This document shows positions 5,607-38,050 of a DNA stretch of 64,000 nt, piece by piece (the stretch's first letter is position 1; every line of letters starts with the position of its first letter). The stretch is from contig NZ_CP019431.1 of NCBI RefSeq assembly GCF_009866765.1, positions 4,030,001 through 4,094,000 on the forward strand. The letters run 5' to 3'. Below the pieces are notes generated by a model. The model was not told the DNA's origin, did no database searches, and saw only the letters and a program-made list of their open reading frames with translations. A program made the translations under genes and the position numbers. The DNA is from Pseudomonas sp. S35 (GTDB taxonomy: Bacteria; Pseudomonadota; Gammaproteobacteria; Pseudomonadales; Pseudomonadaceae).

Positions 5607-5625
5607 TTTCTAAGGATTGCCTGAT
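5607..5625 (+). promoter_or_regulatory. Shared 19-bp motif, copy 1 (adhesin gene)
   Basis: TTTCTAAGGATTGCCTGAT ends 62 bp before the ATG of the adhesin gene. Near-identical copies precede the first hybrid kinase (6649) and the pilin gene (14573). A weak -10-like TAATGT follows 22 bp downstream at 5648. It is probably the binding site of the locus response regulator; this is inferred. Confidence 0.65.
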
Positions 5626-5687
5626 GGGTATCGGCGGGCTGCGTGGCTAATGTGGTGTGCTCTTTGGCCCACACACAAAACTCCCTT

Positions 5688-6647
5688 ATGAAGCGCTTGA
5701 AACAACCATTGATTTTCGCTGCAGTGATGTCGCTGGCTTACTCGTCAGCCGCCGTGGCGGCAACGGACTGCACGTTCAACGGCTCCAACAGCATAAACGT
5801 TAATTTCGGAGCAAGCCTGGCGAACGGCAGCCTGACGATCGCGCGAGACACGCCCAACGGAACGGTGGTCTACGAGGAGTCCCAGTCGATGATCGCTACC
5901 GGTTGGAGCTGTAACGAGACTGCGCCCTACGGGGTACTCATGAATCCTTCGCTTGGGTCTGTTTCCGCCAAAGTCTCGACTTTTCCGTTGGGTAACACAG
6001 GGCTCTCGTTTCGCATTTGGATAGACGCTTTGAGCCGCTACGAATCCTCCGTGCGCCCAATGGAGCCAGGCAACTATGGCATCCCCGCTGGCAGTTACCG
6101 ACTCGAAATCGTCAAATCAGGCGAATTGGCCTCGCAGGTCAAAATCGAAGCCGGCAGCCTTGCGACCCTGATACACAATAACCTGACCCTGAAAGCCTTC
6201 CTCCTGAGCAACCCGCTGATCTTGAACGCGTCCTCCTGCCAGACGCCTTCCGTCCAGGTCGCCATGGGCGACGACTATCAACTGCATGAATTTGGCGACG
6301 CTGGCGCAACCCCGCGCACGGTCCGCTTCGACATCGGCCTGAACCAATGCCAGGCCGGCATCAAGAAAGTGACCTATGCGCTCAAGCCCACCACCCCCGT
6401 CATCGACGCGGCCAAAGGCATCGTCGCCCTGAACGGCAGCTCCACCGCCACCGGCATCGGCCTGCAAGTGATGGATGAGGCCGGTCAACCCATCGTGTTC
6501 GGCGCGCCCTACACCTTTGGCGGTTTCACCACCACCGGGACGAATTTCAAGATTCCCTTGTCGGCAGCCTACTATCGCCTGCCCACCGGCGAGCTCAAGG
6601 CCGGCAGCGCCAACACCGAAGTCACCTTCATCATGAACTACCTTTAA
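5688..6647 (+). CDS. Two-domain fimbrial adhesin (tip protein) of the Roc-linked pilus
   Basis: Secreted fimbrial protein of 319 residues. The ATG at 5688 was chosen because it starts a clean signal peptide (MKRLKQPLIFAAVMSLAYSS, ending AVAA); an upstream GTG at 5643 would add residues that do not fit a signal. An N-terminal receptor-type domain with a Cys pair is followed from about residue 175 by a fimbrial pilin-like domain with a second Cys pair, ending in NTEVTFIMNYL, the donor-strand beta pattern. This two-domain layout is that of tip adhesins. The gene stands alone, about 9 kb from the pilin-chaperone-usher genes, across the signalling genes. Confidence 0.75.
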   Translation: MKRLKQPLIFAAVMSLAYSSAAVAATDCTFNGSNSINVNFGASLANGSLTIARDTPNGTVVYEESQSMIATGWSCNETAPYGVLMNPSLGSVSAKVSTFPLGNTGLSFRIWIDALSRYESSVRPMEPGNYGIPAGSYRLEIVKSGELASQVKIEAGSLATLIHNNLTLKAFLLSNPLILNASSCQTPSVQVAMGDDYQLHEFGDAGATPRTVRFDIGLNQCQAGIKKVTYALKPTTPVIDAAKGIVALNGSSTATGIGLQVMDEAGQPIVFGAPYTFGGFTTTGTNFKIPLSAAYYRLPTGELKAGSANTEVTFIMNYL

Positions 6648-6648
6648 C

Positions 6649-6667
6649 AATCTAAGGATCGTCTGAT
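6649..6667 (+). promoter_or_regulatory. Shared 19-bp motif, copy 2 (first hybrid kinase)
   Basis: AATCTAAGGATCGTCTGAT lies in the 54-bp gap between the adhesin stop and the first kinase ATG, ending 34 bp before the ATG. It matches copy 3 at 16 of 19 positions. TAGAGT at 6690 is a weak -10 candidate with the same 22-bp spacing as at copy 1. Confidence 0.65.
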
Positions 6668-6701
6668 TTTTCCTACACCCGGCCACCCCTAGAGTGCCGG
6701 C

Positions 6702-9494
6702 ATGCGATTAAAAAACTACCTCCACCAGATCAGCCCGGTACTCTCCACGCCGCACACCGCACGGCGCCTGTTGCGCATTTTTGCGCTGGTGCTGCTGGTG
6801 GGCATCGTGGGCGGGGTGTACAGCTTTCTGCTGTTTACCTTCAACAATGAAGTCTCCCAACGTCGCAGCTATATGAGCAGTGCCATTGCCGAGGCACATA
6901 CGTTTTTCACCACCCGTGAAGCGTTGCTCGAAAGCCTGAGCCTGTCCGCCACGCGTAAAACCGAATTAAGCGAGCCGCTGTCCGATGAAGAAATCCGCCT
7001 GTTGCTGGGGCAAACGCCCGGAAAGCAATGGAGCATCTGGCTGACCCAGCGCATGCGCGACTACCTCAAGGCCAAGCAGCTCAACCTGTTGTATGTGGGC
7101 ACCGAAGGCGGCGTGTTGCGGCTGTACAACGCCACAGCAGCGACCACGCTGTTTCCCCAGGCGATGCTCGATCAACTGGAAGCGCTCAAGCTCACAAAAA
7201 CGCTGCAGGAACTCTGGTTGACCCACGCCCTGGACGGGCACTCACAGCTGTATATCTTCATCCGCCTGGACGAGCGTGACGTGAACTCCGGCTGGCTCGG
7301 CCTGGAAATGGACGACCGTGAAGTCTCCAGCGCCTTGAGCGACCACAGTGCCGGTGAATTCACCATGTTCAACGCCCAGGGTGTGGCGCTGTTCAGCAAT
7401 AGCCGCAAGCCGCCGCCGGGGCAGCACCTGCCGTTGTTGCGGCAACAGGACTTCTTCGGTTTTGTCGGTGCCGGCTGGTTGCCCGAGCAATTGGTGTTGC
7501 GCAAGCAGCTCAAGTCCTCGGATTGGCAGCTCACCTACTCCATCGACTTGCGCGCGGTCCTCTGGGCGCTGTGGCCACAAATGTTCGGCGCGCTGGTGTT
7601 CTGCCTGTTGAGCATCAGCCTGGTGTGCCTGCTGACCCGCCGCCTGGAACAACGCTTCATCACCCCGGCGATCCACCGTATCCAGGCACTGGTGGAAAGC
7701 GAGTTGTTCAGCCGCGATGTGATCCAGACTGCCCCGGTGGCGCTGTGTGTACTGCGGCGCACGGACGGCCAGGTGGTGCTGGAAAACACCCTCGCCCGCC
7801 AATGGCTGGGCCACTGCGGCGAACAATTGGGCGCCGGTTGGATTCGCGATGCCTTCGACGCCAGCCCACCGCGCTTCACCGATTACTTCCAGACCGCCGA
7901 CGGCCGCCACCTGTACCTCAGTTGCGCCCCAACCCGCTACAAAGGTGAAGACGTGTTGCTGTGTGCATTCAGCGACATCAGTGCGCGCACGCAAATCGAA
8001 GCCGCATTGGAGCAGGCACGCCAATCGGCCGACGCGGCCAACGAAGCCAAGACGTTGTTCCTCGCCACCATGAGCCACGAAATCCGCACCCCACTGTACG
8101 GCGTATTGGGCACCTTGGAGTTACTCGCCCGCACGCGCCTGGATACCCAGCAGAAGAGTTACCTGCGCGCCATCGAAGGCTCATCCGCCACCTTGCTGCA
8201 ATTGATTTGCGATGTGCTGGATGTGTCAAAAATCGAAGCCGGCCAGTTGGCCCTGGAGCTGAGCGAATTTTCCGTGCCGGGCCTGGTGCAGGAGGTGGTG
8301 CAGGGTTACGCGGCGGCGGCGCAGAGCAAAGGGTTGCAGCTGTATGCCTGCCTTGATCCGCAATTGCCAGAGCGCTTGAAAGGCGATGTCAGCCGCGTGC
8401 GGCAGATCCTCAATAACTTGCTGAGCAACGCGGTCAAATTCACCGATTCCGGGCGTGTGGTGCTGCGGGTCAAGCTGCTGGGGCGTGAAGGCGAACGAGT
8501 GTGCCTGCAATGGCAAGTCTCGGACACCGGCAAAGGCATTGCCCACGACGACCAGGCCCTGATCTTCGACCCCTTCTACCAGACCGAAGGCAACACACAT
8601 GTGGTGGCTGGCACCGGCCTGGGCCTGCCGATTTGCCTGCGCCTGACCCATTTGATGAACGGCACCCTGCGCCTGGTCAGCGAGCCGGGTCTGGGCAGCA
8701 GCTTTTCCCTGAGCGTGCCGTTGGAACAGCCGTGTGGCAACGCGTCGTCAGACGGCCCGCCGACCTTGGCGGCAGACACCGTGTATGTGGTCTCACCCAT
8801 CCACGAGCTGGCGCACAGCCTCAGTGGCTGGCTGCACCGCTGGGGCGCCCGCCCGCAGATCGGTGCGCCGGCTGGACGGGAGCCGGGCGTGTTACTCGAA
8901 CTGCATCAGGGCGGCGTCGAACCCCGGTCGACCGCGCCGTGGCACGGGCCACGGGTACTCGCCAGCGGCGATGGCCCACACGAACCGCAACTCACCGAGC
9001 ACGGCTGGAAGGTCAACCTCAATGACCTGCGGGCCATCCAACAGGCGGTTCGCCAAGCCCAGGGCGGCCAACCGGCCGAGCCCCAGACACCCGCTGAGCA
9101 CCGCGATCTACGCCCCTTGCACCTGCATATCCTGGTGGCCGAAGACAACGTGATCAACCAACTGATTCTGCGTGACCAGCTCGAAGAGCTGGGCTGCACG
9201 GTAACGCTGGCCAGCGACGGTGAAGACGCCTTGGCGCAGTGGCACGACGGCACATTCGATGTTGTCCTGACCGACGTCAACATGCCAACGCTCAATGGCT
9301 ACGAACTGGCCGAAGCACTGCGTCGCCTGGGCTGCACCACCCCCATCATCGGTGCCACCGCCAATGCCCTGCGCGGTGAAGACGCCCTGTGCCTCGCCGC
9401 TGGCATGAATCACTGCCTGGTCAAACCTTTTACGCTGCGAGCCTTGTTCACTGCCCTGGCTCCCTACCAAAGAGTCATCCATGAAGCGCTGTAG
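6702..9494 (+). CDS. Hybrid sensor histidine kinase 1 (RocS/BvgS-like), no Hpt domain
   Basis: Membrane sensor kinase of 930 residues. TM1 is at about 25-45, a periplasmic loop runs to about 283, and TM2 is at about 285-310. A PAS-like segment precedes HisKA (SHEIRTPLYGVLG, phospho-His H459), HATPase_c (N-box LNNLLSNAVKF; DTGKGIA; GTGLGL) and a degraded middle receiver-like region (about 690-790). A C-terminal receiver follows (EDNVIN; phospho-Asp D858 in LTDVNMP). The protein ends soon after the receiver, with no Hpt domain. Its last 14 bp overlap the next gene. It resembles the Roc/Sad kinases that control cup fimbriae in P. aeruginosa and is paralogous to the kinase at 10752. The stimulus is unknown. 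Confidence 0.88.
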   Translation: MRLKNYLHQISPVLSTPHTARRLLRIFALVLLVGIVGGVYSFLLFTFNNEVSQRRSYMSSAIAEAHTFFTTREALLESLSLSATRKTELSEPLSDEEIRLLLGQTPGKQWSIWLTQRMRDYLKAKQLNLLYVGTEGGVLRLYNATAATTLFPQAMLDQLEALKLTKTLQELWLTHALDGHSQLYIFIRLDERDVNSGWLGLEMDDREVSSALSDHSAGEFTMFNAQGVALFSNSRKPPPGQHLPLLRQQDFFGFVGAGWLPEQLVLRKQLKSSDWQLTYSIDLRAVLWALWPQMFGALVFCLLSISLVCLLTRRLEQRFITPAIHRIQALVESELFSRDVIQTAPVALCVLRRTDGQVVLENTLARQWLGHCGEQLGAGWIRDAFDASPPRFTDYFQTADGRHLYLSCAPTRYKGEDVLLCAFSDISARTQIEAALEQARQSADAANEAKTLFLATMSHEIRTPLYGVLGTLELLARTRLDTQQKSYLRAIEGSSATLLQLICDVLDVSKIEAGQLALELSEFSVPGLVQEVVQGYAAAAQSKGLQLYACLDPQLPERLKGDVSRVRQILNNLLSNAVKFTDSGRVVLRVKLLGREGERVCLQWQVSDTGKGIAHDDQALIFDPFYQTEGNTHVVAGTGLGLPICLRLTHLMNGTLRLVSEPGLGSSFSLSVPLEQPCGNASSDGPPTLAADTVYVVSPIHELAHSLSGWLHRWGARPQIGAPAGREPGVLLELHQGGVEPRSTAPWHGPRVLASGDGPHEPQLTEHGWKVNLNDLRAIQQAVRQAQGGQPAEPQTPAEHRDLRPLHLHILVAEDNVINQLILRDQLEELGCTVTLASDGEDALAQWHDGTFDVVLTDVNMPTLNGYELAEALRRLGCTTPIIGATANALRGEDALCLAAGMNHCLVKPFTLRALFTALAPYQRVIHEAL

Positions 9495-10668
9495 TATTTT
9501 GATTGTCGAAGACCACCCCTTCCAGCACCTGTACTTGCAGAACCTGTTCAATGCATTGGGCGACTTCGACCTGGAGTACGCCAGGGACGGCGAAACCGCA
9601 TTGGCCTGCCTGAAACGGCGCAACTTCGACCTAGTGCTCACCGACCTGCTGATGCCCGGCATGGACGGCGTGCAATTTATCCAGAGCCTCGCTGCACAAC
9701 CCTCACGCCCCGCGCTGGCGATCATGAGCGCGGCGTCACGGCGCATGTTGATGGGCGCCAGCCTGGTGGCGAGCAACCTGCAAGTGACGGTGATCGGGCT
9801 GATTTCCAAGCCAGTGAACGCCGCCGCCCTGCGCTGCCTGATCGATCAGTTGCACGCCCTGCGCCAGACCGAACCGCCGCCAACCCAGCCGGGCATCAAC
9901 CGCGACAGCCTGTTGCATGCCCTCGACAACGGCCAACTGCATGCCTGGTTTCAGCCCAAGAAAGCCTTGGAGAATGGTCGCATCGTCGCCGCCGAAGCCT
10001 TGGTGCGCTGGATTCATCCCGAGCACGGCACGCTGTTGCCCGGCGTATTCCTGCCGGCACTGATCGCCTACGACCTCGAAGAATGCCTGCTGTGGCGCAT
10101 GCTGCAACAATCAATCCTAGCCCAAGCTGCCTGGCGTCAACGGGGGTATGACATCCCGGTGTCGATCAACCTGCCCACTCATCTGCTCAACAGCCACGAC
10201 CTGCCCGACCGTATCCTCGACTTCGTGCTGGCGCATCAAGGTTTGCCTGCGCGGATCTGCTTTGAGTTGATGGAGTGCTCGGTGCCCGATGACATCAGCA
10301 ATTTCTACGCCGGCGCCTGCCGACTGCGGATCAAGGGGTTTAGTCTGTCCCAGGATGATTTTGGCAAGGGCTACAGCTCGTACATGAACCTGGTGTCGGC
10401 GCCCTTCACCGAAGTGAAGATCGACCGCGCGCTGGTGCAAGGCTGCAACGCCAGCGAAGAGTTGGCCCAGGCGCTGGCCAGCATTGTCAGCCTGGGCCGC
10501 CAGCTGGGCTTGGTGGTGGTGGCCGAAGGCGTGGAAACCGCGCAAGAACTTGCGCTGTTGCGTAAGATCGACTGCACTCAGGTCCAGGGTTTCCTGATCT
10601 CCCACGCTGTGTCTTCGGATCAGTTCCAGCAATTGCTGTCCCATGACGGGCCGGCGAACGTCTATTGA
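9481..10668 (+). CDS. Receiver-EAL response regulator (RocR/SadR-like c-di-GMP phosphodiesterase)
   Basis: Cytoplasmic protein of 395 residues with a receiver domain at about 4-125 (ED10-11; phospho-acceptor D55 in LTDLLMPG) and an EAL domain at about 145-390. EAL catalytic residues look intact: E172 in EALVRW, the Asn in SINLP, the Glu in CFELME, D292-D293 in DDFGKGYSS, Lys in EVKID, E349 in AEGVE and Gln in VQGF. Hydrolysis of c-di-GMP is therefore predicted, tuned by phosphorylation. The ATG lies inside the end of the upstream kinase gene (14-bp overlap). In P. aeruginosa, RocR antagonises RocA1-driven fimbriae; a similar role is inferred here. Confidence 0.88.
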   Translation: MKRCSILIVEDHPFQHLYLQNLFNALGDFDLEYARDGETALACLKRRNFDLVLTDLLMPGMDGVQFIQSLAAQPSRPALAIMSAASRRMLMGASLVASNLQVTVIGLISKPVNAAALRCLIDQLHALRQTEPPPTQPGINRDSLLHALDNGQLHAWFQPKKALENGRIVAAEALVRWIHPEHGTLLPGVFLPALIAYDLEECLLWRMLQQSILAQAAWRQRGYDIPVSINLPTHLLNSHDLPDRILDFVLAHQGLPARICFELMECSVPDDISNFYAGACRLRIKGFSLSQDDFGKGYSSYMNLVSAPFTEVKIDRALVQGCNASEELAQALASIVSLGRQLGLVVVAEGVETAQELALLRKIDCTQVQGFLISHAVSSDQFQQLLSHDGPANVY

Positions 10669-10751
10669 CCCGCAGCAGGGTGTGGCCGAACGTCATTCGC
10701 TCCAGAGGTCAATGTGTCCAAAGGCTGCTCCATCATCGTCCAGGCACTGTA

Positions 10752-13700
10752 ATGCAACATCCCAACGCCTTCCTGGAGAAACTGGCCAGCAGCTCACTGC
10801 GCCTGAACAAAGGCTTGCTGGTACTTGGCGCCCTGGCGCTGTTGCTGCTGGGCGTCAGCTACTGGGGCGTACAGCGCATGCTCGACGAGCAGCGCGACAC
10901 CCTGCAGTTTCACTTCGCCCGACTGATGGAGAATATCCACGAGCAGGAGGTGTTCTTGCGTGACATCTCGCGTGAAAGCCTCAAGGACACGCTCGACCCT
11001 GCGACCCTGTTACCACCGGTGGTGCAAAAAGCGCTGCCTGAAGAAGGCCCGAATATCTATGAGGGCCGTGGCCTGCCGTTTTCCCTGCCGTACAGCGTGA
11101 GGATCAACCCGCACAAGATCGCCGCCCCCCAACACCCCAAAGTCTTTGCGCTGGGTACCTACCTCGCCGCCTACTACAGCGCCTTCTGGGCGGCGTCGCA
11201 CTATCAGTCGCCCCAAGTGATCCTGCTCAATGGCCCGGACACTTTCGACGTGACCGTGCCCGCCACCGGGCGTTTGCGCGGTGCGGGGCAAATACCGGTG
11301 GGGGCATTTGTCGAAGTGATGACGCAGGTGGACGAGCACCTGCGCATGCAGAACACCTCGCAACCGAACCATCAGGTGCATTGGGCGCCGTATCAGGCGG
11401 ATCAGGCCGCCCCTACCTTGCTGGCCTACATCGATATCAACCTGACCGGGACAGCACTGAGTATCGAGGGCGCGAACACCTGGGTGGTGGTGGGCTCGCT
11501 GCTGAACCTGTCCCAGGTCAATAACATCGAGCGGCTGATGCAGTGGTCGATCTACGACGACTTCACCTTGGTAACGCCCGCCGGCGCGGTATTGACCGGT
11601 GCCCTGAAGCCCGGTGAGGTGTTGGATGAGGGGGTGAATTTCACCCGCGACGGCCTGGTGTTCAAACTGACCAGCCCCGGTGAAGAGCGCTGGACGGCGA
11701 TCTACGTCATCAGTCTGCGCAGCTTTTTGAACTACGCACTGTGGCCCTTGCTGTGCCTGATCACCCTAGTGCTGGCGCTGCTGGGGTGCAGTCGTGCGCT
11801 CAATCGCTGGTACGCCGCACGGGTCATCCTGCCCGCCCAACGGGCCCACGCCGGCATTGCCGAAAGCGAAGCATTCGGCCGCGCAGTGATTGATACGGCG
11901 CCGACCGGCCTGTGCGTGATTCGCCGCAGCGACCACCACGTGCTCCTGCAAAACCAACGTGCTCAGGCCTGGCACGACACGCGCCAATTGAAGGACCTGC
12001 TCAAGGCCCATGCCGAAGCAGGGCACGCCGACCTCGAACTCGACGGGCGCCACCTGCACGTCGCCTTCGTGCCCACCCGCTACCAGGGCCAGGATGCCTG
12101 GCTCTGCGCGCTGCATGACGTGACCCGGCACATCGAAGACGCCGCCGCCCTGGACGACGCGCGCCGGGCCGCCGACTCGGCGAACCAGGCCAAGAGCCGT
12201 TTCCTCGCCACCATGAGCCATGAAATCCGCACACCGCTGTATGGGGTGCTAGGCACCTTGGAACTGCTCGGCCTGACCGCCCTCGCCCCGCGCCAGCAGG
12301 ATTACCTGCACACCATCCAACGTTCCTCCGCCACTCTGTTCCAATTGATCAGCGATGTGCTGGACGTGTCGAAAATCGAGGCGGGCCAAATGACCCTCGA
12401 GCCGCAAGCGTTTTGCCCGCTGGAACTGACCGAAGACTGCGTGCGCACCTACAGCGCCTTTGCACGCGCCAAGGGTTTGCAACTGTATGCCTGCATCGAG
12501 GCCTCGCTACCCGACCGGGTACGCGGCGATCCGCTGCGCATCCGCCAGGTTCTCAACAACCTGCTGAGCAACGCGATCAAGTTCACCGACAATGGCCGCG
12601 TGGTAGTGCGGGTGCGCGTGCTGGAAGACGCACGCGTGCAGTGGCAAGTCAGCGACTCGGGCGTGGGCATTTCCCAGGCCCAGCAACAGCAGTTGTTCGA
12701 CCCGTTCTACCAGGCCAACGATGCGACCAGCCAAGGCGGTGCGGGCCTGGGCCTGGCGATCTGCAAATGGCTGTGCGAATTGATGCACGGCCAACTCAAG
12801 GTGGTCAGCGAGCCTGGGCTGGGCAGCAGTTTCACCCTGGAGCTGCCCCTGGAATCGATGCCCGGCAGCTTGGCCAACTGCCCTTCATTTGCACCCCAGG
12901 CGCCAGCCGTCTACGTCCGCGCGCCAGTCGCCGAGCAAGCGCAGCACCTGATCGATTGGCTCAACCGGCTGGGCCTCGACGGCCGCCCGTTCACGGCCGA
13001 GACGCCCGCGCAGGCGTTGCGGGTGGATTTATGCTGGCGGACCACTGACGCACATCAATCCGTGCCCCGCGTCGTCGCCACACCGGGCGGGCCCAACCCG
13101 CCGTTGTGGGACGGTGCCAACTGGGCCGTCGACGCCGATGACGTGCGCGCCATCGCCTGGGCGGTTTACCTGGCGCACCACGGCGAGCACGCCGGCCATC
13201 GTCCTTCAGTCGGCGAAAAAAACCGCGACCTGAACCTGAAGGTGCTGGTGGCAGAAGACAACGTGATCAACGCCGCGATCATCAAGGAGCAACTGGAAGC
13301 CCTGGGCTGTTCAGTCATCACCGCCGCCAACGGCGAACAGGCGTTGATGCAGTGGGCACTGGGGCGCTTTGACCTGGTGCTGACCGACGTGAACATGCCG
13401 ATCATGAACGGCTACCAGTTGGCCGAGGCTCTGCGCCGGCAGGATACAACCTTGCCGATCATTGGCGTCACCGCCAACGCACTGCGCGAAGAAGGCGAAC
13501 GCTGCGCTGCTGTCGGCATGAATGCGTGGCTGGTCAAGCCGCTGAGCCTGGCCACATTGCGTGCCCAGCTTGAGCAGCATTGCGAGATCGCGCTGCCCCC
13601 CGCAGTCGCCGCCCCACTGCAACTGTCGCCCAAAATGCGCAAGCTGTTTGTCACGACCCTGCGCCAGGATGTGATTGCCACCCTGGCGGCATTGGAGTGC

Positions 13701-13895
13701 GCCGATGCCAATCGGGTGGCGCAACACTTACACAGCATGGCCGGTGCCTTAGGCGCAGTGCAGGCCGGCGAGATGGCGACGGCCTTTGTCGAGCTGGAAT
13801 GTCGCTTGACCGGCATGGCCGTCACGCCGGCATTGGCGGCTGACGTGCAGCAGCACCTGGAGCGGTTGAATGCCTTACTCAATGCCCTTGAATAA
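10752..13895 (+). CDS. Hybrid sensor histidine kinase 2 (RocS/BvgS-like) with C-terminal Hpt
   Basis: Sensor kinase of 1047 residues from the ATG at 10752, chosen because the first transmembrane helix (about 20-40) follows it directly; an upstream TTG at 10665 would overlap the EAL gene. A periplasmic loop runs to about 325, followed by TM2, a PAS-like linker, HisKA (H490), HATPase_c (LNNLLSNAIKF; DSGVGIS; GAGLGL), receiver (D879 in LTDVNMP) and an Hpt domain with H994 in LHSMAG. It therefore has a complete His-Asp-His relay, unlike kinase 1. The kinase cores of the two are strongly alike while the periplasmic parts differ, suggesting duplication and divergence of input. Confidence 0.88.
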   Translation: MQHPNAFLEKLASSSLRLNKGLLVLGALALLLLGVSYWGVQRMLDEQRDTLQFHFARLMENIHEQEVFLRDISRESLKDTLDPATLLPPVVQKALPEEGPNIYEGRGLPFSLPYSVRINPHKIAAPQHPKVFALGTYLAAYYSAFWAASHYQSPQVILLNGPDTFDVTVPATGRLRGAGQIPVGAFVEVMTQVDEHLRMQNTSQPNHQVHWAPYQADQAAPTLLAYIDINLTGTALSIEGANTWVVVGSLLNLSQVNNIERLMQWSIYDDFTLVTPAGAVLTGALKPGEVLDEGVNFTRDGLVFKLTSPGEERWTAIYVISLRSFLNYALWPLLCLITLVLALLGCSRALNRWYAARVILPAQRAHAGIAESEAFGRAVIDTAPTGLCVIRRSDHHVLLQNQRAQAWHDTRQLKDLLKAHAEAGHADLELDGRHLHVAFVPTRYQGQDAWLCALHDVTRHIEDAAALDDARRAADSANQAKSRFLATMSHEIRTPLYGVLGTLELLGLTALAPRQQDYLHTIQRSSATLFQLISDVLDVSKIEAGQMTLEPQAFCPLELTEDCVRTYSAFARAKGLQLYACIEASLPDRVRGDPLRIRQVLNNLLSNAIKFTDNGRVVVRVRVLEDARVQWQVSDSGVGISQAQQQQLFDPFYQANDATSQGGAGLGLAICKWLCELMHGQLKVVSEPGLGSSFTLELPLESMPGSLANCPSFAPQAPAVYVRAPVAEQAQHLIDWLNRLGLDGRPFTAETPAQALRVDLCWRTTDAHQSVPRVVATPGGPNPPLWDGANWAVDADDVRAIAWAVYLAHHGEHAGHRPSVGEKNRDLNLKVLVAEDNVINAAIIKEQLEALGCSVITAANGEQALMQWALGRFDLVLTDVNMPIMNGYQLAEALRRQDTTLPIIGVTANALREEGERCAAVGMNAWLVKPLSLATLRAQLEQHCEIALPPAVAAPLQLSPKMRKLFVTTLRQDVIATLAALECADANRVAQHLHSMAGALGAVQAGEMATAFVELECRLTGMAVTPALAADVQQHLERLNALLNALE

Positions 13896-13918
13896 TTTCA
13901 GACTGGAAAATCACACTC

Positions 13919-14566
13919 ATGGAAACCCTCAACGTTGTCATTGCCGATGATCACCCCATCGTACTGGTGGGGGTGCGAGAGCTGATTGAGCGGGACGCAC
14001 GCTTTCGCGTGGTCGGCGAGGCCGTGTCCCCCAGCGAACTGGTCAGCCTGCTGGAGTCCCGGCCCGTGGACCTGGTGATCACTGACTTCAATATGCCCGG
14101 CGACTCCCCCTACGGTGACGGCCTCAAGCTGGTGGAATACCTGACACGGCACTTCCCCAGCGTGCGTGTGCTGGTGCTCACCATGATCTCCAACCCCTTG
14201 ATCCTTACGCGCCTGCAGGAGCTGGGTGTGCTGGCAGTCATTCAGAAGAACCAGTTGCATGCCGAGATCCAGGCCGCACTCAAGGCCATCGCCCGTGGCA
14301 ACCCGATTCGCAACAGCGCCCCGGTGCCGGCATCGGTGAGGGAGTCCGGCATGGACCTGGATGAACGGTTTACGCGGCTATCGCCCAAAGAACATGAAAT
14401 CTTGCGTTTGTTTGTCTCGGGGCAAGGTGTCAACGAAATTGCGCGCGGGTTAAATAGAAGTGCCAAGACCATCAGTACGCAGAAAGTAGCAGCCATGCGC
14501 AAACTAGAGGTGAGTAGCGACCAGGATTTATTGGCTTATTGCATCGAACGCAACTTGTTCAACTAA
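13919..14566 (+). CDS. BvgA/RocA-like response regulator (receiver + LuxR HTH)
   Basis: DNA-binding response regulator of 215 residues. The receiver has acidic DD10-11 and phospho-acceptor D56 (TDFNMPG), the characteristic switch region, then a LuxR-type HTH (LSPKEHEILRLFVSGQGVNEIARGLNRSAKTISTQK, about 150-185). It follows kinase 2 by 23 bp and is probably the output of the relay. In BvgA/RocA1 systems this regulator activates fimbrial genes. The pilin gene starts 85 bp after its stop, with the shared motif in between. Confidence 0.9.
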   Translation: METLNVVIADDHPIVLVGVRELIERDARFRVVGEAVSPSELVSLLESRPVDLVITDFNMPGDSPYGDGLKLVEYLTRHFPSVRVLVLTMISNPLILTRLQELGVLAVIQKNQLHAEIQAALKAIARGNPIRNSAPVPASVRESGMDLDERFTRLSPKEHEILRLFVSGQGVNEIARGLNRSAKTISTQKVAAMRKLEVSSDQDLLAYCIERNLFN

Positions 14567-14572
14567 CCGTAG

Positions 14573-14591
14573 TTTCTAGGGATCGTCTGAT
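14573..14591 (+). promoter_or_regulatory. Shared 19-bp motif, copy 3 (pilin operon)
   Basis: TTTCTAGGGATCGTCTGAT begins 7 bp after the regulator stop and ends 60 bp before the pilin ATG, almost the same distance as at copy 1 (62 bp). TATATC at 14612, 20 bp downstream, is a plausible -10. It is probably the activator site of the pilin-chaperone-usher operon. Confidence 0.68.
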
Positions 14592-14651
14592 TTATCACTC
14601 AGGTACCCCGCTATATCGTGTTGATTCACAACCAACAACGGTATTACTCAC

Positions 14652-15233
14652 ATGAAAACCTTTTCTCGGGCACTGCTCGCCTTGTCTATTGTTGTCGCTG
14701 CCGGTCATGCCGTGGCCGCGCCTACCCTGGCGGGCGGCGGTACCCTCAACTTCACCGGCACCATCAACGTCGATGCCTGCTCCGCCAGCGCAGGCGGGGT
14801 TAATAAAAACATCTCCGTGGACATGGGCAACGTATCGGTCAAGGACATGGGCACCGTGGCCGCGCCTAAAAGCAACGGCACCCTGAGTGCACAGAACTTC
14901 GACATGAAGATCAACTGCAACACCGGCGCCAAAGTGTCGATGACCTTTGAGCCGACCAAAGGCGCAGGTTCGGGCATCGCTACTGGCGGCAAGGTCCTCA
15001 AGCTCGTCGAAGGCATGGGCGCGGCCAAAAACGTCGGCATTGCGTTGCTCGACGGGAATGGCGCGCTGATCGACCTGAGTTCACCGACCACGGCAATCAT
15101 CGAAAGCCCGCTGCAAGGCGGCAACACCTCGCTGAAATTCTCGGCGGTGTATGTCACCACCGCCACCGACGTCTCCACGGTGGTTGCCGGGCGCGGTGAC
15201 GCCACACTGCCGTTCGTCCTGCAATACGAATAA
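14652..15233 (+). CDS. Major fimbrial subunit (CupB1/CupC1-like pilin)
   Basis: Exported pilin of 193 residues. It has a signal peptide ending AVAA, then a fimbrial fold with a Cys pair (one in VDACSAS, one in INCNTG) and a C-terminal beta motif ending LPFVLQYE, the strand recognised by the chaperone. It is the first gene of a pilin-chaperone-usher operon with the shared motif upstream. Confidence 0.9.
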   Translation: MKTFSRALLALSIVVAAGHAVAAPTLAGGGTLNFTGTINVDACSASAGGVNKNISVDMGNVSVKDMGTVAAPKSNGTLSAQNFDMKINCNTGAKVSMTFEPTKGAGSGIATGGKVLKLVEGMGAAKNVGIALLDGNGALIDLSSPTTAIIESPLQGGNTSLKFSAVYVTTATDVSTVVAGRGDATLPFVLQYE

Positions 15234-15305: not shown

Positions 15306-16055
15306 ATGTTTTATCGTCACGCTTTGTCCGTTTGCGCAGGCCTGCTGGAACTGTTGCTGATCAACCCGGCGACGGCCGGCATTTCACTGAGCGGCACGCG
15401 CCTGGTCTTCGACGGCGCGCACAAGGAAGCCGGAATCACCGTGCGTAATAGCGGTAACGACGTGCTGATCCAGTCCTGGATCGACACCAATGCCGACGAC
15501 GCCACTTCTGTGCCCTTTGCCGTCACCCCACCACTGGTGCGGGTCAATGGCAACGAACAGCAACTGTTGCGGGTGATCTACGAAGGCACGGGCATGCCAA
15601 CCGATCGCGAGTCGGTGGTGTGGCTCAATGTGCAGGAAATTCCCCAGGCATCGAAAACCCCGAATACCTTGCAGCTGGCCGTACGCCAGCGCATCAAGGT
15701 GCTCTTTCGCCCTGCGGGCATGAAAGACAACGCCTATCTGGCCCCCGCCGAGTTGTCGTGGCGGCTGGTCGAGCGCGGCGCAAGGAACGTGTTAGTGGTG
15801 AATAACCCCAGCCTGTACCACGTGTCGATTGCCGAAATCACGTTGCAATCCGGCGAACTCAGTGAACATCCGTTTGACTCCACCATGATCGCGCCCGGCG
15901 AACAAAAAGAGTTCACGCTGAAAAAACTGACGCAGAGCCCTGCGCCGCGTTTGTTATTCAGCAGTATTAATGACTATGGCGCACGCGATCGTTATACCGC
16001 GCAACTTTCCAACTCAGCCAACATTCAGGCGAGTTTGGTCAAAGAGTCCCCTTAG
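15306..16055 (+). CDS. Periplasmic pilus chaperone (PapD family)
   Basis: PapD-like chaperone of 249 residues. After a signal peptide (ending ATAG), the mature protein shows SLSGTRLVFDG with the conserved Arg, and RQRIKVLFRPAG with the conserved Lys that anchors the subunit C-terminus. The second immunoglobulin-like domain follows LVVNNPSLYHVS. It caps pilin subunits in the periplasm and delivers them to the usher encoded next. Confidence 0.93.
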   Translation: MFYRHALSVCAGLLELLLINPATAGISLSGTRLVFDGAHKEAGITVRNSGNDVLIQSWIDTNADDATSVPFAVTPPLVRVNGNEQQLLRVIYEGTGMPTDRESVVWLNVQEIPQASKTPNTLQLAVRQRIKVLFRPAGMKDNAYLAPAELSWRLVERGARNVLVVNNPSLYHVSIAEITLQSGELSEHPFDSTMIAPGEQKEFTLKKLTQSPAPRLLFSSINDYGARDRYTAQLSNSANIQASLVKESP

Positions 16056-24070: not shown

Positions 24071-24715
24071 CTAAGCCGTTGCAGCATGTAACGCCTGGGG
24101 ATTGGGGTGGAAAAACACGTGTTCCAGGACCGGTCCTACAGCGACTTCGCCGATTTCCTCATAACCCTGGCGTTTATAGAAATCCAGGTAGCGCGAGTTG
24201 CCCGTATCCAGCACCACGCCGGTCGAGTGCGGGTCGTCGGCGCACCAGTTGTGCACCGCTTCCAATAACTGCTCACCGTAGTGTTTGCCCTGGAATTGCG
24301 GGTGAATACCCAACAGCGGCAACACATGCACCGACTCGCTGGGCAAGCACGCCAGCACCGCGTGATGGTAATCAAGGTAACGCCGCGTACCGCGCACACC
24401 GGTGCTCAGCCACATGCGCAGTTGCCAGGCCCAACTCTCGGTAATCCCCAGGCGCCGTTGCGGTGGCGCAATCAGGGCAATGCCGATAAGACGATCGTTC
24501 ACGAACAGACCAATGGCCGGCAGTTTCTGGAAGAAATGCTGCTTGACCAACTCACGCACGGTGGCGCGTACCCGCTGCTCATAGCCTGGGCGTTCGGCTT
24601 CGAAGATGTAGGCAAAGGTCGGCTCATGCCGATAGGCCTGGTAAAGCAGGGAGCGGGCTTCGCGCGAATAGCCGCTGTTGAGCAGGCGAACTTCGCCAAT
24701 GGCAGTGTCAGTCAT
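24071..24715 (-). CDS. GNAT-family N-acetyltransferase
   Basis: Predicted acyl-CoA-dependent transferase of 214 residues from the ATG at 24715. The GNAT core is seen at VHVLPLLGIHPQFQGKHYGEQLLEAV (motif A, about residues 126-151) and LDTGNSRYLDFYKRQGYEEIGEV (motif B). It lies upstream of tamA on the same strand, 64 bp apart, so co-transcription is possible. The substrate is unknown. Confidence 0.85.
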   Translation of the reverse strand: MTDTAIGEVRLLNSGYSREARSLLYQAYRHEPTFAYIFEAERPGYEQRVRATVRELVKQHFFQKLPAIGLFVNDRLIGIALIAPPQRRLGITESWAWQLRMWLSTGVRGTRRYLDYHHAVLACLPSESVHVLPLLGIHPQFQGKHYGEQLLEAVHNWCADDPHSTGVVLDTGNSRYLDFYKRQGYEEIGEVAVGPVLEHVFFHPNPQALHAATA

Positions 24716-36128: not shown

Positions 36129-38050
36129 GCACACTGACCACTGTGTTGGTGGCCAATCGCGGTGAGATTGCCTGCCGGGTGATGCGCACCGCCAAGGCCC
36201 TGGGTTTGACTACGGTCGCCGTGCACAGCGCCATCGACCGCGATGCGCGGCACAGTCGCGAGGCGGATATCTGTGTCGACCTGGGCGGCAGCAAAGCCAC
36301 GGAAAGCTATCTGCAGATCGACAAAATCATTGCTGCTGCCCTGGCCAGTGGCGCCCAAGCCATTCATCCGGGCTACGGCTTCCTGTCGGAAAACGCCGGC
36401 TTTGCCCGGGCGATTGAAGCCGCGGGCCTGATCTTCCTCGGCCCACCCGCCTCGGCCATCGACGCCATGGGCAGTAAATCGGCGGCCAAGGCACTGATGG
36501 AAACCGCCGGTGTGCCACTGGTGCCGGGTTATCACGGCGACGCACAAGACTTGGATACGTTCCGGGCGGCCTGTGAGCGCATCGGCTACCCGGTGCTGCT
36601 CAAGGCTACGGCCGGGGGCGGCGGCAAGGGCATGAAGGTGGTCGAGCATGTTGACCAACTCGCCGAAGCGCTGGCGTCGGCCCAGCGTGAGGCGCTGTCG
36701 TCCTTTGGCAATGGGCAGATGCTGGTGGAGAAATACCTGCTCAAGCCACGCCACGTAGAGATTCAGGTATTTGCCGATCAGCATGGGCATTGCCTGTACC
36801 TCAACGAACGCGATTGCTCGATTCAACGTCGCCACCAAAAGGTCGTTGAGGAAGCGCCGGCACCCGGGTTCAGTGGTGAGCAGCGCAAGGCCATGGGCGA
36901 AGCCGCTGTACGTGCAGCCCAGGCCATTGGCTACGTGGGCGCAGGCACGGTGGAGTTTCTGTTGGACGCCCGTGGCGAGTTTTTCTTTATGGAGATGAAC
37001 ACGCGCCTGCAAGTGGAACACCCCGTGACCGAAGCCATTACCGGCCTGGACCTGGTGGCTTGGCAAATCCGGGTCGCCCAGGGCGAGGCACTGCCGATGA
37101 CCCAAGAGCAGGTGCCACTAATCGGCCATGCAATCGAAGTGCGCTTGTATGCCGAAGACCCGGTCAACGATTTCCTACCTGTCACCGGCCACCTGACGCT
37201 GTACCGCGAATCCGCTGCTGGCCCGGGACGTCGGGTGGACAGCGGCATCGAGCAAGGGGACAGCGTCTCGCCCTTCTATGATCCAATGCTCGGCAAGCTG
37301 ATTGCCTGGGGCGAGGACCGTGAACAGGCGCGGTTGCGACTGCTGAGCATGCTCGATGAATTTGCCATTGGTGGTTTGAAGACCAACCTGGGTTTCCTGC
37401 GGCACATCATCGGGCACCCTTCGTTTGCGGCGGCACAACTGGATACCGGATTTATTGCGCGTTACCAGGATGAACTGCTGCCCACGCCCGGTGAGTTGAG
37501 CGATGAGTTCTGGCAAGCGGCGGGGTCGGCCTTCGTACAGAGTTTGCCGCTGGGTGAAGGGCCGTGGGCGAGCACAGGTGGGTTTCGCGCAGGCTTGCCC
37601 ACTGAGGTCTCGCTGCATCTGAGCTGCAATGGCCAGGATCGACTGGTGAGACTGGCTGGCGACACCGCGCAGTTGCACGGCGAACAGTTGCTGATCGACC
37701 GCCAGGGTGTGCGTCGTTCACATCTGGCGGTACGTCGTGAAGGGTCAGTGTTCTTGCGCTGGGACGGTGAGATGCATGGCGTGAGCCTATTTGACCCGAT
37801 CGCAGCGGTGGAGGCCAACCAGTCTCACCAGGGCGGCCTCACGGCGCCGATGAACGGCAGCATCGTGCGGGTGCTGGTGGATGTGGGCCAGGCCGTGGAA
37901 GCTGGCACACAACTGGTGGTTTTGGAGGCAATGAAGATGGAGCACAGCATCCGCGCGCCCCAGGCCGGAGTGGTCAAGGCGCTGTTCTGCCAGGAAGGGG
38001 AAATGGTTGCCGAAGGTTGCGCGCTGGTGGAGCTTGAAACGGCGGACTAG
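36125..38050 (+). CDS. liuD: 3-methylcrotonyl-CoA carboxylase alpha subunit (biotin carboxylase + BCCP)
   Basis: ATP-dependent biotin-carboxylase subunit (mccA) of 641 residues. It begins VLVANRGEIACRVMRTAK, the standard biotin carboxylase start, with the ATP-grasp loop KATAGGGGKGMK, EMNTRLQVEHPVTE and the C-terminal biotinyl domain with EAMKMEH (biotin Lys604). The ATG at 36125 overlaps the liuC stop by 4 bp. Last gene of the operon; the S24-type regulator downstream is on the opposite strand, with stop codons overlapping by 4 bp. Confidence 0.95.
   Translation: MSTLTTVLVANRGEIACRVMRTAKALGLTTVAVHSAIDRDARHSREADICVDLGGSKATESYLQIDKIIAAALASGAQAIHPGYGFLSENAGFARAIEAAGLIFLGPPASAIDAMGSKSAAKALMETAGVPLVPGYHGDAQDLDTFRAACERIGYPVLLKATAGGGGKGMKVVEHVDQLAEALASAQREALSSFGNGQMLVEKYLLKPRHVEIQVFADQHGHCLYLNERDCSIQRRHQKVVEEAPAPGFSGEQRKAMGEAAVRAAQAIGYVGAGTVEFLLDARGEFFFMEMNTRLQVEHPVTEAITGLDLVAWQIRVAQGEALPMTQEQVPLIGHAIEVRLYAEDPVNDFLPVTGHLTLYRESAAGPGRRVDSGIEQGDSVSPFYDPMLGKLIAWGEDREQARLRLLSMLDEFAIGGLKTNLGFLRHIIGHPSFAAAQLDTGFIARYQDELLPTPGELSDEFWQAAGSAFVQSLPLGEGPWASTGGFRAGLPTEVSLHLSCNGQDRLVRLAGDTAQLHGEQLLIDRQGVRRSHLAVRREGSVFLRWDGEMHGVSLFDPIAAVEANQSHQGGLTAPMNGSIVRVLVDVGQAVEAGTQLVVLEAMKMEHSIRAPQAGVVKALFCQEGEMVAEGCALVELETAD

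What the first reader, a model, noticed from the sequence alone, without database searches (positions are those of the whole stretch)
5607..14591. One 19-bp motif marks the three transcription-unit starts of the fimbrial signalling locus
TTTCTAAGGATTGCCTGAT (5607), AATCTAAGGATCGTCTGAT (6649) and TTTCTAGGGATCGTCTGAT (14573) lie upstream of the adhesin, the first hybrid kinase and the pilin, at 62, 34 and 60 bp from the ATG. Weak -10-like hexamers follow 20-22 bp later in each case. I noticed no further copy in the window. BvgA-family regulators bind TTTC-starting heptads near -35; the encoded RocA-like regulator is of that family. The simplest reading is its binding site, which would define a three-unit regulon with autoregulation of the kinase. 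I know of no published consensus of this form.
Basis: partly seen in the sequence, partly recalled or inferred. Interest (0 to 1): 0.7.

Follow-up and report, generated by a model that had tools for sequence, protein, structure and literature searches.

The report
RcsB-type switch for Pseudomonas fimbriae
Three copies of one short DNA word mark the on-switches of a surface-fibre locus in a Pseudomonas; they look like landing sites for the regulator the locus itself encodes, and one switch sits so close to its gene that the message probably has no leader.

Summary
In detail: copies at 5607, 6649 and 14573, 62, 34 and 60 bp from the ATGs, no fourth within 3 mismatches. The regulator is RcsB-class and the gene set matches PvrS-PvrR-RcsC-RcsB of Pseudomonas aeruginosa CupD. 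The motif is an RcsB-type operator (genus form TAAGRATYGTCTKAT; E. coli RcsAB box TAAGAATATTCCTA), not BvgA heptads. Each window copy is followed by exactly 22 bp and a TANNNT -10, as are 80 of 91 promoter-placed copies in the loci compared: class II activator geometry. In 199 further Pseudomonas genomes the composite box, -10 and ATG gave 31 sites, 28 beside an RcsB orthologue, reversed control 0; the other three are also kinase starts, in broken or rearranged loci. At the kinase operon, which includes the regulator gene, the -10 ends 6-7 nt before the ATG in 47 of 51 loci, without Shine-Dalgarno: a predicted leaderless mRNA, for which I found no report. RcsB sites and autoinduction are published for P. 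aeruginosa; binding here is inferred.

The parts
5607..5625 (+). RcsB-type box upstream of the adhesin; core TAAGGATTGCCTGAT at 5611-5625
5648..5653 (+). predicted -10 TAATGT, 22 bp after the box
   Evidence: sequence; spacing statistics
5688..6647 (+). fimbrial adhesin-like protein (C-terminal Fimbrial domain, residues 190-318 of 319)
   Evidence: Pfam PF00419 1.9e-14
6649..6667 (+). RcsB-type box upstream of the kinase operon; core TAAGGATCGTCTGAT at 6653-6667
6690..6695 (+). predicted -10 TAGAGT; 6 nt before the ATG, so the predicted +1 is the A of the ATG (6702): leaderless mRNA
6702..9494 (+). hybrid histidine kinase without Hpt match (PvrS-like)
   Evidence: HisKA, HATPase, REC; synteny with PA7
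9481..10668 (+). REC-EAL response regulator (PvrR/RocR-like)
   Evidence: Pfam; PDB RocR 3sy8 6.8e-53
10752..13895 (+). unorthodox hybrid kinase with C-terminal Hpt (RcsC-like); the ORF lister starts at an upstream TTG, 10665
   Evidence: Pfam HisKA, HATPase, REC; Hpt 23.1 bits, just under its 24.6 cut-off
13919..14566 (+). RcsB-class response regulator, presumed to bind the boxes
14573..14591 (+). RcsB-type box upstream of the pilin; core TAGGGATCGTCTGAT at 14577-14591
14614..14619 (+). predicted -10 TATCGT, 22 bp after the box
   Evidence: sequence; spacing statistics
14652..15233 (+). pilin-like fimbrial subunit
   Evidence: Pfam PF00419 1.1e-16
15306..16055 (+). PapD-type periplasmic chaperone
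   Evidence: Pfam PF00345, PF02753
16143..18611 (+). outer-membrane usher
   Evidence: PF00577 match at G000 4046704-4048344

Best explanation
The 19-bp motif is the operator of the RcsB-class response regulator encoded at 13919-14566, the last gene of a PvrS-PvrR-RcsC-RcsB-like phosphorelay operon. A dimer binds the 14-bp imperfect inverted repeat TAAGRNNNNTCTKA. The box ends 22 bp before a TANNNT -10 and so covers the -35 position (centre near -42), where the activator would recruit sigma-70 RNA polymerase (class II activation). The three boxes drive the adhesin, the phosphorelay operon including the regulator (positive autoregulation) and the pilin-chaperone-usher operon. At the phosphorelay operon the -10 lies 6 nt before the ATG, so transcription should start on or within about 2 nt of the start codon, giving a leaderless mRNA. 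Shown here: box, spacing, conservation and co-occurrence with the regulator. Inferred: binding, activation, start site, leaderless translation.
For: (1) Specificity in the genome: of 8 usher genes, 3 lie in the two loci that carry an RcsB paralogue and boxes; no box (15-mer, up to 2 mismatches) was found in the stretches fetched around 4 others; the eighth lies in the window, where the nearest relaxed hit is 20 kb away. (2) Co-occurrence: WAAGGATYGTCTGAT, written from copies in this genome, occurs in 18 of 52 Pseudomonas genomes with the regulator (at least 50% identity) and 1 of 147 without; 25 of 28 sites lie within 12 kb of the gene; reversed control 1. Genus form TAAGRATCGTCTKAT: 34 of 52 versus 0 of 147; 52 of 57 sites nearby; reversed control 0. 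(3) Replication: box-N22-TANNNT-N5/6-ATG in 199 other genomes gave 31 sites, in 29 of 55 genomes with the regulator (E up to 1e-60) and 2 of 144 without (p=2e-17), reversed control 0; the 3 sites not near a regulator gene are kinase starts too. (4) Spacing: TANNNT at exactly +22 in 35/41 kinase, 28/32 pilin, 11/11 adhesin, 6/7 chaperone-first and 0/9 unassigned sites. (5) Regulator: PDB best hits are E. coli RcsB; recognition helix NRSAKTISTQKVAAM versus NRSIKTISSQKKSAM, keeping base-contacting K180, with S184 replaced by T (contacts from PMC5829831). (6) Box: genus form 11/14 identical to the E. coli RcsAB box. (7) P. aeruginosa PA7 has the same operon behind a box 34 bp before its kinase ATG, and a box before a response-regulator gene at 36183-36776 that I take, by position, for PA0034, a published putative RcsB target (PMC3842833). 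(8) PMC3842833 reports that RcsB overproduction induces pvrS, pvrR, rcsC and rcsB, and that GAA at -78 to -76 of cupD1 is essential.
Against: No binding or expression data for this organism. The genus form was written after seeing the first set of loci, so that comparison is partly circular; sequences are phylogenetically related, so Fisher p-values overstate independence. At up to 3 mismatches 20 of the 58 fetched loci (regulator identity 62% or less) showed no promoter-placed box; of the 12 of these with a kinase-1 gene, 10 have a drifted box (2-4 mismatches to the 15-mer, e.g. TGAGATCCGTCTTAT) at 34-35 bp, L118 only with an alternative start, L116 none. In the whole PA7 genome hits barely exceed the reversed control (12 versus 10). 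Around RocR-type genes 16 of 20 named loci, PA7 roc1 among them, have no hit at up to 2 mismatches. In the second locus of this genome only 2 of 6 sites (kinase, one adhesin site) have TANNNT at +22; three other promoter-side sites lack it and one is inside a gene. Other RcsB/RocA-type regulators could also bind.
Confidence: 0.9

Rival explanations
1. The boxes are bound mainly by another NarL/RcsB-type regulator (the paralogue at 4.94 Mb or a RocA-type protein), so the encoded regulator is only one of several inputs.
For: The two loci share nearly the same box; in P. aeruginosa RocA1, RocA2 and RocA3 have highly similar motifs and overlapping in vitro targets (PMC12051241, passages). The genome has 15 matches to this regulator at E up to 0.001, itself included.
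Against: Box presence tracks this orthologue across genomes, and the box lies beside it in genomes, such as G016, where only one such gene reached E 1e-40.
Confidence: 0.25
2. BvgA-type heptad site near -35.
For: The regulator has the REC plus LuxR-type HTH make-up shared with BvgA (BvgA recalled), and two of the three copies begin TTTC.
Against: Of the four positions 5' of the core only one, a T, is well conserved (1.59 bits; the others 0.11-0.66); conservation sits in TAAGRATYGTCTKAT. EvgA is far weaker than RcsB as a PDB match.
Confidence: 0.03
3. The motif is an extended promoter of an alternative sigma factor, not an activator site.
For: Rigid spacing to a second element.
Against: The downstream element is a sigma-70-like TANNNT, the 14-bp core is an imperfect inverted repeat, and the motif tracks a DNA-binding response regulator.
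Confidence: 0.04
4. Shared ancestry of duplicated promoter DNA, without regulatory constraint.
For: The two loci in the genome are paralogous.
Against: The 22 bp between box and -10 vary while the box and TANNNT are kept across loci with kinase identity down to about 50%, and adhesin, kinase and pilin promoters share these elements at the same spacing.
Confidence: 0.02

Closest known systems
PvrSR/RcsCB-CupD of P. aeruginosa PA14 (PMC2696094 passages; PMC3842833 passages, section 9, part 1 of section 13)
   Same: Same four signalling gene types (kinase without Hpt, REC-EAL regulator, kinase with Hpt, RcsB-class regulator) next to a chaperone-usher operon; an RcsB site in the pilin promoter; induction of pvrS, pvrR, rcsC and rcsB by RcsB.
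   Different: Signalling and fimbrial genes lie on one strand here (opposite strands in PA14), with a separate adhesin unit; the box at a fixed 34 bp before the kinase and the predicted leaderless start were not found in what I read.
E. coli RcsB and the RcsAB box (TAAGAATATTCCTA; PMC12388358 and PMC5829831, passages)
   Same: Regulator class, K180-bearing recognition helix, 14-bp inverted-repeat geometry TAAGR-N4-TCnnA.
   Different: Central bases (CG instead of AT), S184 replaced by T; fimbrial rather than capsule/flagellar targets. Whether RcsA or RcsD homologues exist here was not searched.
RocA1/RocA2/RocA3 of the P. aeruginosa Roc system (PMC12051241, passages and abstract)
   Same: Response regulators that activate cup fimbriae, opposed by a REC-EAL partner; published DAP-seq motifs.
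   Different: The best PA7 match to the window regulator is 52% identical and lies in the syntenic locus; the others are 36% or less, and the one next to PA7 RocR is 27%. Motif letters were not available to compare.

Membership tests
RcsB-class response regulator | REC plus LuxR-type HTH with best structural-database match to RcsB | tested here: met
RcsB-class response regulator | DNA-contact residues K180 and S184 of E. coli RcsB | tested here: inconclusive
   K kept; S replaced by T here and by A in many orthologues
RcsB (RcsAB-type) box | 14-bp TAAGAATATTCCTA-like inverted repeat | tested here: met
   genus form 11/14; the window copies 8, 9 and 8 of 14 (pilin copy 10 on the other strand)
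RcsB (RcsAB-type) box | bound by the cognate regulator | not testable with these tools
   needs EMSA or footprinting
PvrSR/RcsCB-Cup locus | kinase, REC-EAL, kinase-Hpt and RcsB genes next to a chaperone-usher operon | tested here: met
   Hpt just below its Pfam cut-off
PvrSR/RcsCB-Cup locus | RcsC acts as phosphorelay/phosphatase and PvrS as kinase | not testable with these tools
   published for PA14 (PMC3842833)
BvgA-type heptad site | conserved TTTC-starting heptads | tested here: not met
Leaderless mRNA | -10 ends 6-7 nt before the start codon, no Shine-Dalgarno | tested here: met
   47/51 kinase genes versus 11/320 other genes of the same loci; Shine-Dalgarno 0/51
Leaderless mRNA | mapped 5' end at the start codon | not tested
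   no RNA data; needs 5' RACE or dRNA-seq

The most novel reading that the evidence does not exclude
Across the genus Pseudomonas, the RcsB-type phosphorelay that controls chaperone-usher fimbriae is itself switched on by its own regulator from a promoter whose start site is the start codon of the kinase gene, so the feedback arm is made from a leaderless mRNA while the adhesin and pilin arms of the same regulon have leaders of about 25-65 nt. The feedback arm could then be translated differently (for example by 70S monosomes, or under stress that spares leaderless mRNAs) from the structural arms, splitting one regulon at the level of translation.
Probability: 0.6. Interest if true: 0.65.

Novelty: new member of a known kind. 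Interest (0 to 1): 0.5.

Why it matters
It gives a precise operator rule (box, 22 bp, TANNNT) for predicting RcsB-controlled fimbrial genes in Pseudomonas, including units away from the regulator. It offers a cis-element for the reported RcsB autoinduction in P. aeruginosa. It also predicts a conserved leaderless mRNA in a sensory operon, which a single 5'-end mapping experiment can confirm or kill.

Tried and rejected
BvgA heptads: rejected on conservation pattern and regulator class. RocA-like label: replaced, because the best PA7 match is the RcsB-like protein in the syntenic locus. Regulon spread over unrelated genes: in this genome the relaxed 15-mer gave 31 hits at up to 2 mismatches against 9 for the reversed pattern; three 1-mismatch hits (128916, 2206046, 2550187) are inside ORFs. 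Of the 17-mer hits (36 at up to 3 mismatches, reversed control 12), three sit 8.36 kb apart in repeated DNA, and those at 582172 and 4754611 overlap or abut gene starts in unrelated contexts; the rest of both lists outside the two loci was not examined one by one, apart from 1653706. Off-locus sites of the exact patterns in other genomes, 8 in all: L258 before a chaperone-adhesin pair, L255 by near-identical sequence the same, L256 beside a response-regulator gene, L257 364 bp before a fimbrial gene, L259 beside a gene that looks like a pilin but has no Pfam match; L254, L260 and L261 inside ORFs. A text search for six forms of the motif returned three papers, none on bacterial regulation by title and abstract. 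Searches for a leaderless pvrS or kinase report found none (passages of PMC3460626). The published RocA motif could not be compared: the passages name a supplementary figure and no letters.
Full report
What is there. The three 19-mers are exact and placed as reported; the 17-bp core has three matches and no fourth at up to 3 mismatches in the 64-kb window, against 0.29 expected. The window lies at 4030001-4094000 of a 6.61-Mb genome. Named relatives of the regulator among the 120 listed belong to Pseudomonas, for instance P. paralactis, P. gessardii and P. lactis, apart from environmental entries; the species of the window was not determined.

The genes. Pfam gives a Fimbrial adhesin, a hybrid kinase without Hpt, a REC-EAL regulator, a kinase with a near-threshold Hpt, a REC-LuxR regulator, a pilin and a chaperone; an usher follows. 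The signalling genes overlap or lie close (9481/9494; 10668/10752; 13895/13919), so the box at 6649 heads an apparent operon that includes the regulator. PDB best hits of the regulator are E. coli RcsB (E 3.8e-44), with EvgA at 2.3e-13. The gene set matches PvrS, PvrR, RcsC and RcsB of P. aeruginosa CupD (PMC2696094, passages; PMC3842833, passages, section 9 and part 1 of section 13). PA7 has these genes in the same order with 47, 54, 44 and 52% identity; the order in PA14 I recall but did not see.

A second locus. In the same genome a 57% paralogue of the regulator lies at 4939081-4939713 in another signalling-fimbrial locus. Copies there stand 34 bp before the kinase, 59 before an adhesin and 97 before a pilin, with two further sites in the divergent region. 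Only two of the six sites there (kinase, one adhesin site) have TANNNT at +22; three promoter-side sites lack it and one is inside a gene. Of 8 usher genes three are in these two loci; four others, fetched with flanks, have no box at up to 2 mismatches; the eighth, at 4075132, lies in the window, which has no further 17-mer copy and one relaxed 2-mismatch hit 20 kb away.

Conservation. Regulator homologues at E up to 1e-40 occur in 75 of 199 Pseudomonas genomes, in 98 listed rows. I fetched 58 stretches around the top 64 rows, leaving out this genome's own two and tandem neighbours. In these plus the window and L021/L022, the 17-mer at up to 3 mismatches gave 100 hits against 0 for the reversed pattern; 91 lie upstream of an annotated gene of the locus: kinase 41, pilin 32, adhesin 11, chaperone 7. 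Twenty of the 58 had no promoter-placed hit; their regulator identity is 62% or less. Of the 12 of these with a kinase-1 gene, 10 have a drifted box, for instance TGAGATCCGTCTTAT, at 34-35 bp; L118 only with an alternative start, L116 none.

Co-occurrence. The pattern written from this genome: 28 sites in 19 of 199 genomes, 25 within 12 kb of a regulator gene; 18 of 52 genomes with the regulator (50% identity or more) against 1 of 147 without; reversed control 1. The genus form: 57 sites in 34 genomes, 52 nearby, 34 of 52 against 0 of 147, reversed control 0. The genus form was written after seeing these loci, so I re-tested: the composite box-N22-TANNNT-N5/6-ATG in 398 genomes, of which 199 were new, gave 31 new sites; 29 of 55 new genomes with the regulator (E up to 1e-60) and 2 of 144 without; reversed control 0. 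In the first 199 it gave 30 sites, all near a regulator gene. The three new sites not near one are also kinase-1 starts: one contig ends inside the second kinase, one locus is internally deleted, one is rearranged. Just under half of regulator-bearing genomes (49 of 107) lack an exact composite match. Genomes are related, so p-values are indicative only.

Promoter geometry. TANNNT starts exactly 22 bp after the box in 35/41 kinase, 28/32 pilin, 11/11 adhesin and 6/7 chaperone-first sites, and in 0/9 unassigned sites. In the window all three agree. By the usual sigma-70 spacing this centres the box near -42, the class II activator position (inference from established promoter geometry).

Leaderless start. 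Because the same box-to--10 register holds at pilin and adhesin promoters, where the ATG is 57-98 and 59-80 bp away (apart from one 241-bp pilin assignment), the -10 before the kinase is identified independently of its ATG. It ends 6 or 7 nt before the ATG in 47 of 51 kinase genes, against 11 of 320 other genes of these loci (9 of the 11 are ushers; start codons of these other genes are approximate); a Shine-Dalgarno-like word is present in 0 of 51 kinases. A permissive count (xANNNT) gives 41 with 6 and 7 with 7 of 48 loci that have a box-ATG pair, one further locus (L116) having none. At 12 of codons 2-20 one residue is kept in at least 32 of 48 loci, several by different synonymous codons, which supports translation from that ATG. 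Transcription should therefore start at about the A of the ATG. I found no report of this, in the held library only.

Link to published work. PMC3842833 shows by mutation that GAA at -78 to -76 of cupD1 is needed and likens the site to the E. coli RcsAB box; lists PA0034 as a putative target; and reports that RcsB overproduction raises pvrS, pvrR, rcsC and rcsB. In PA7 the box before the response-regulator gene at 36183-36776, which I take by position for PA0034, reads TCAGAAATGTCTTAT, and the pilin box beside the RcsB orthologue places GAA at -77 to -75 of the second of two ATGs, my own count. Yet the 12 hits in the whole PA7 genome barely exceed the 10 of the reversed pattern, and around RocR-type genes 16 of 20 named loci, roc1 of PA7 among them, have none. 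The autoinduction would be explained by the box before the kinase. RcsB contacts bases with K180 and S184 (PMC5829831, passages); here K is kept and S is T.

Verdict. An RcsB-type operator controlling a Cup-like fimbrial regulon with autoregulation: known in kind, new in extent and in its fixed architecture. The least expected part is the conserved predicted leaderless kinase operon.

Noticed in passing
L021:3726-4136 (-) and L213:1785-2237 (-): A small 135-150 aa protein without Pfam match lies last in the fimbrial gene row of the second locus; a similar-looking ORF in PA7 has a 3-mismatch box and a TTAGAGT upstream. It may be the receiver-like orphan type described for PA1468.
   Followed up: partly
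L258:4858-6654, L255:4202-5998: A chaperone-adhesin pair away from the signalling locus (Pfam checked in L258 only) carries an exact box 34 bp before a possible start codon, with CAGAAT at +22 (read in L258).
   Followed up: partly
L118, upstream of the kinase: Besides a weaker box, a TTAAGAATATTCTGA word close to the E. coli RcsAB box lies just before the kinase start.
   Followed up: no
G000 3278085, 3286449, 3294813: Three stretches 8.36 kb apart (phage-like by eye) each hold the same 3-mismatch copy of the motif.
   Followed up: no
L099-L104, L107, L108: A deeper clade has a drifted box (such as TGAGATCCGTCTTAT) and mostly RSNKTVSAQK instead of RSAKTISTQK in the recognition helix; possible co-evolution, but L100 has RSIKT with the drifted box.
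   Followed up: partly
L110, L112, L113, L114: Two regulator genes of this family stand in tandem, and no second kinase was seen in the row.
   Followed up: no
window 24486-24500 (-): A 2-mismatch hit of the relaxed 15-mer (GAACGATCGTCTTAT); context not examined.
   Followed up: no
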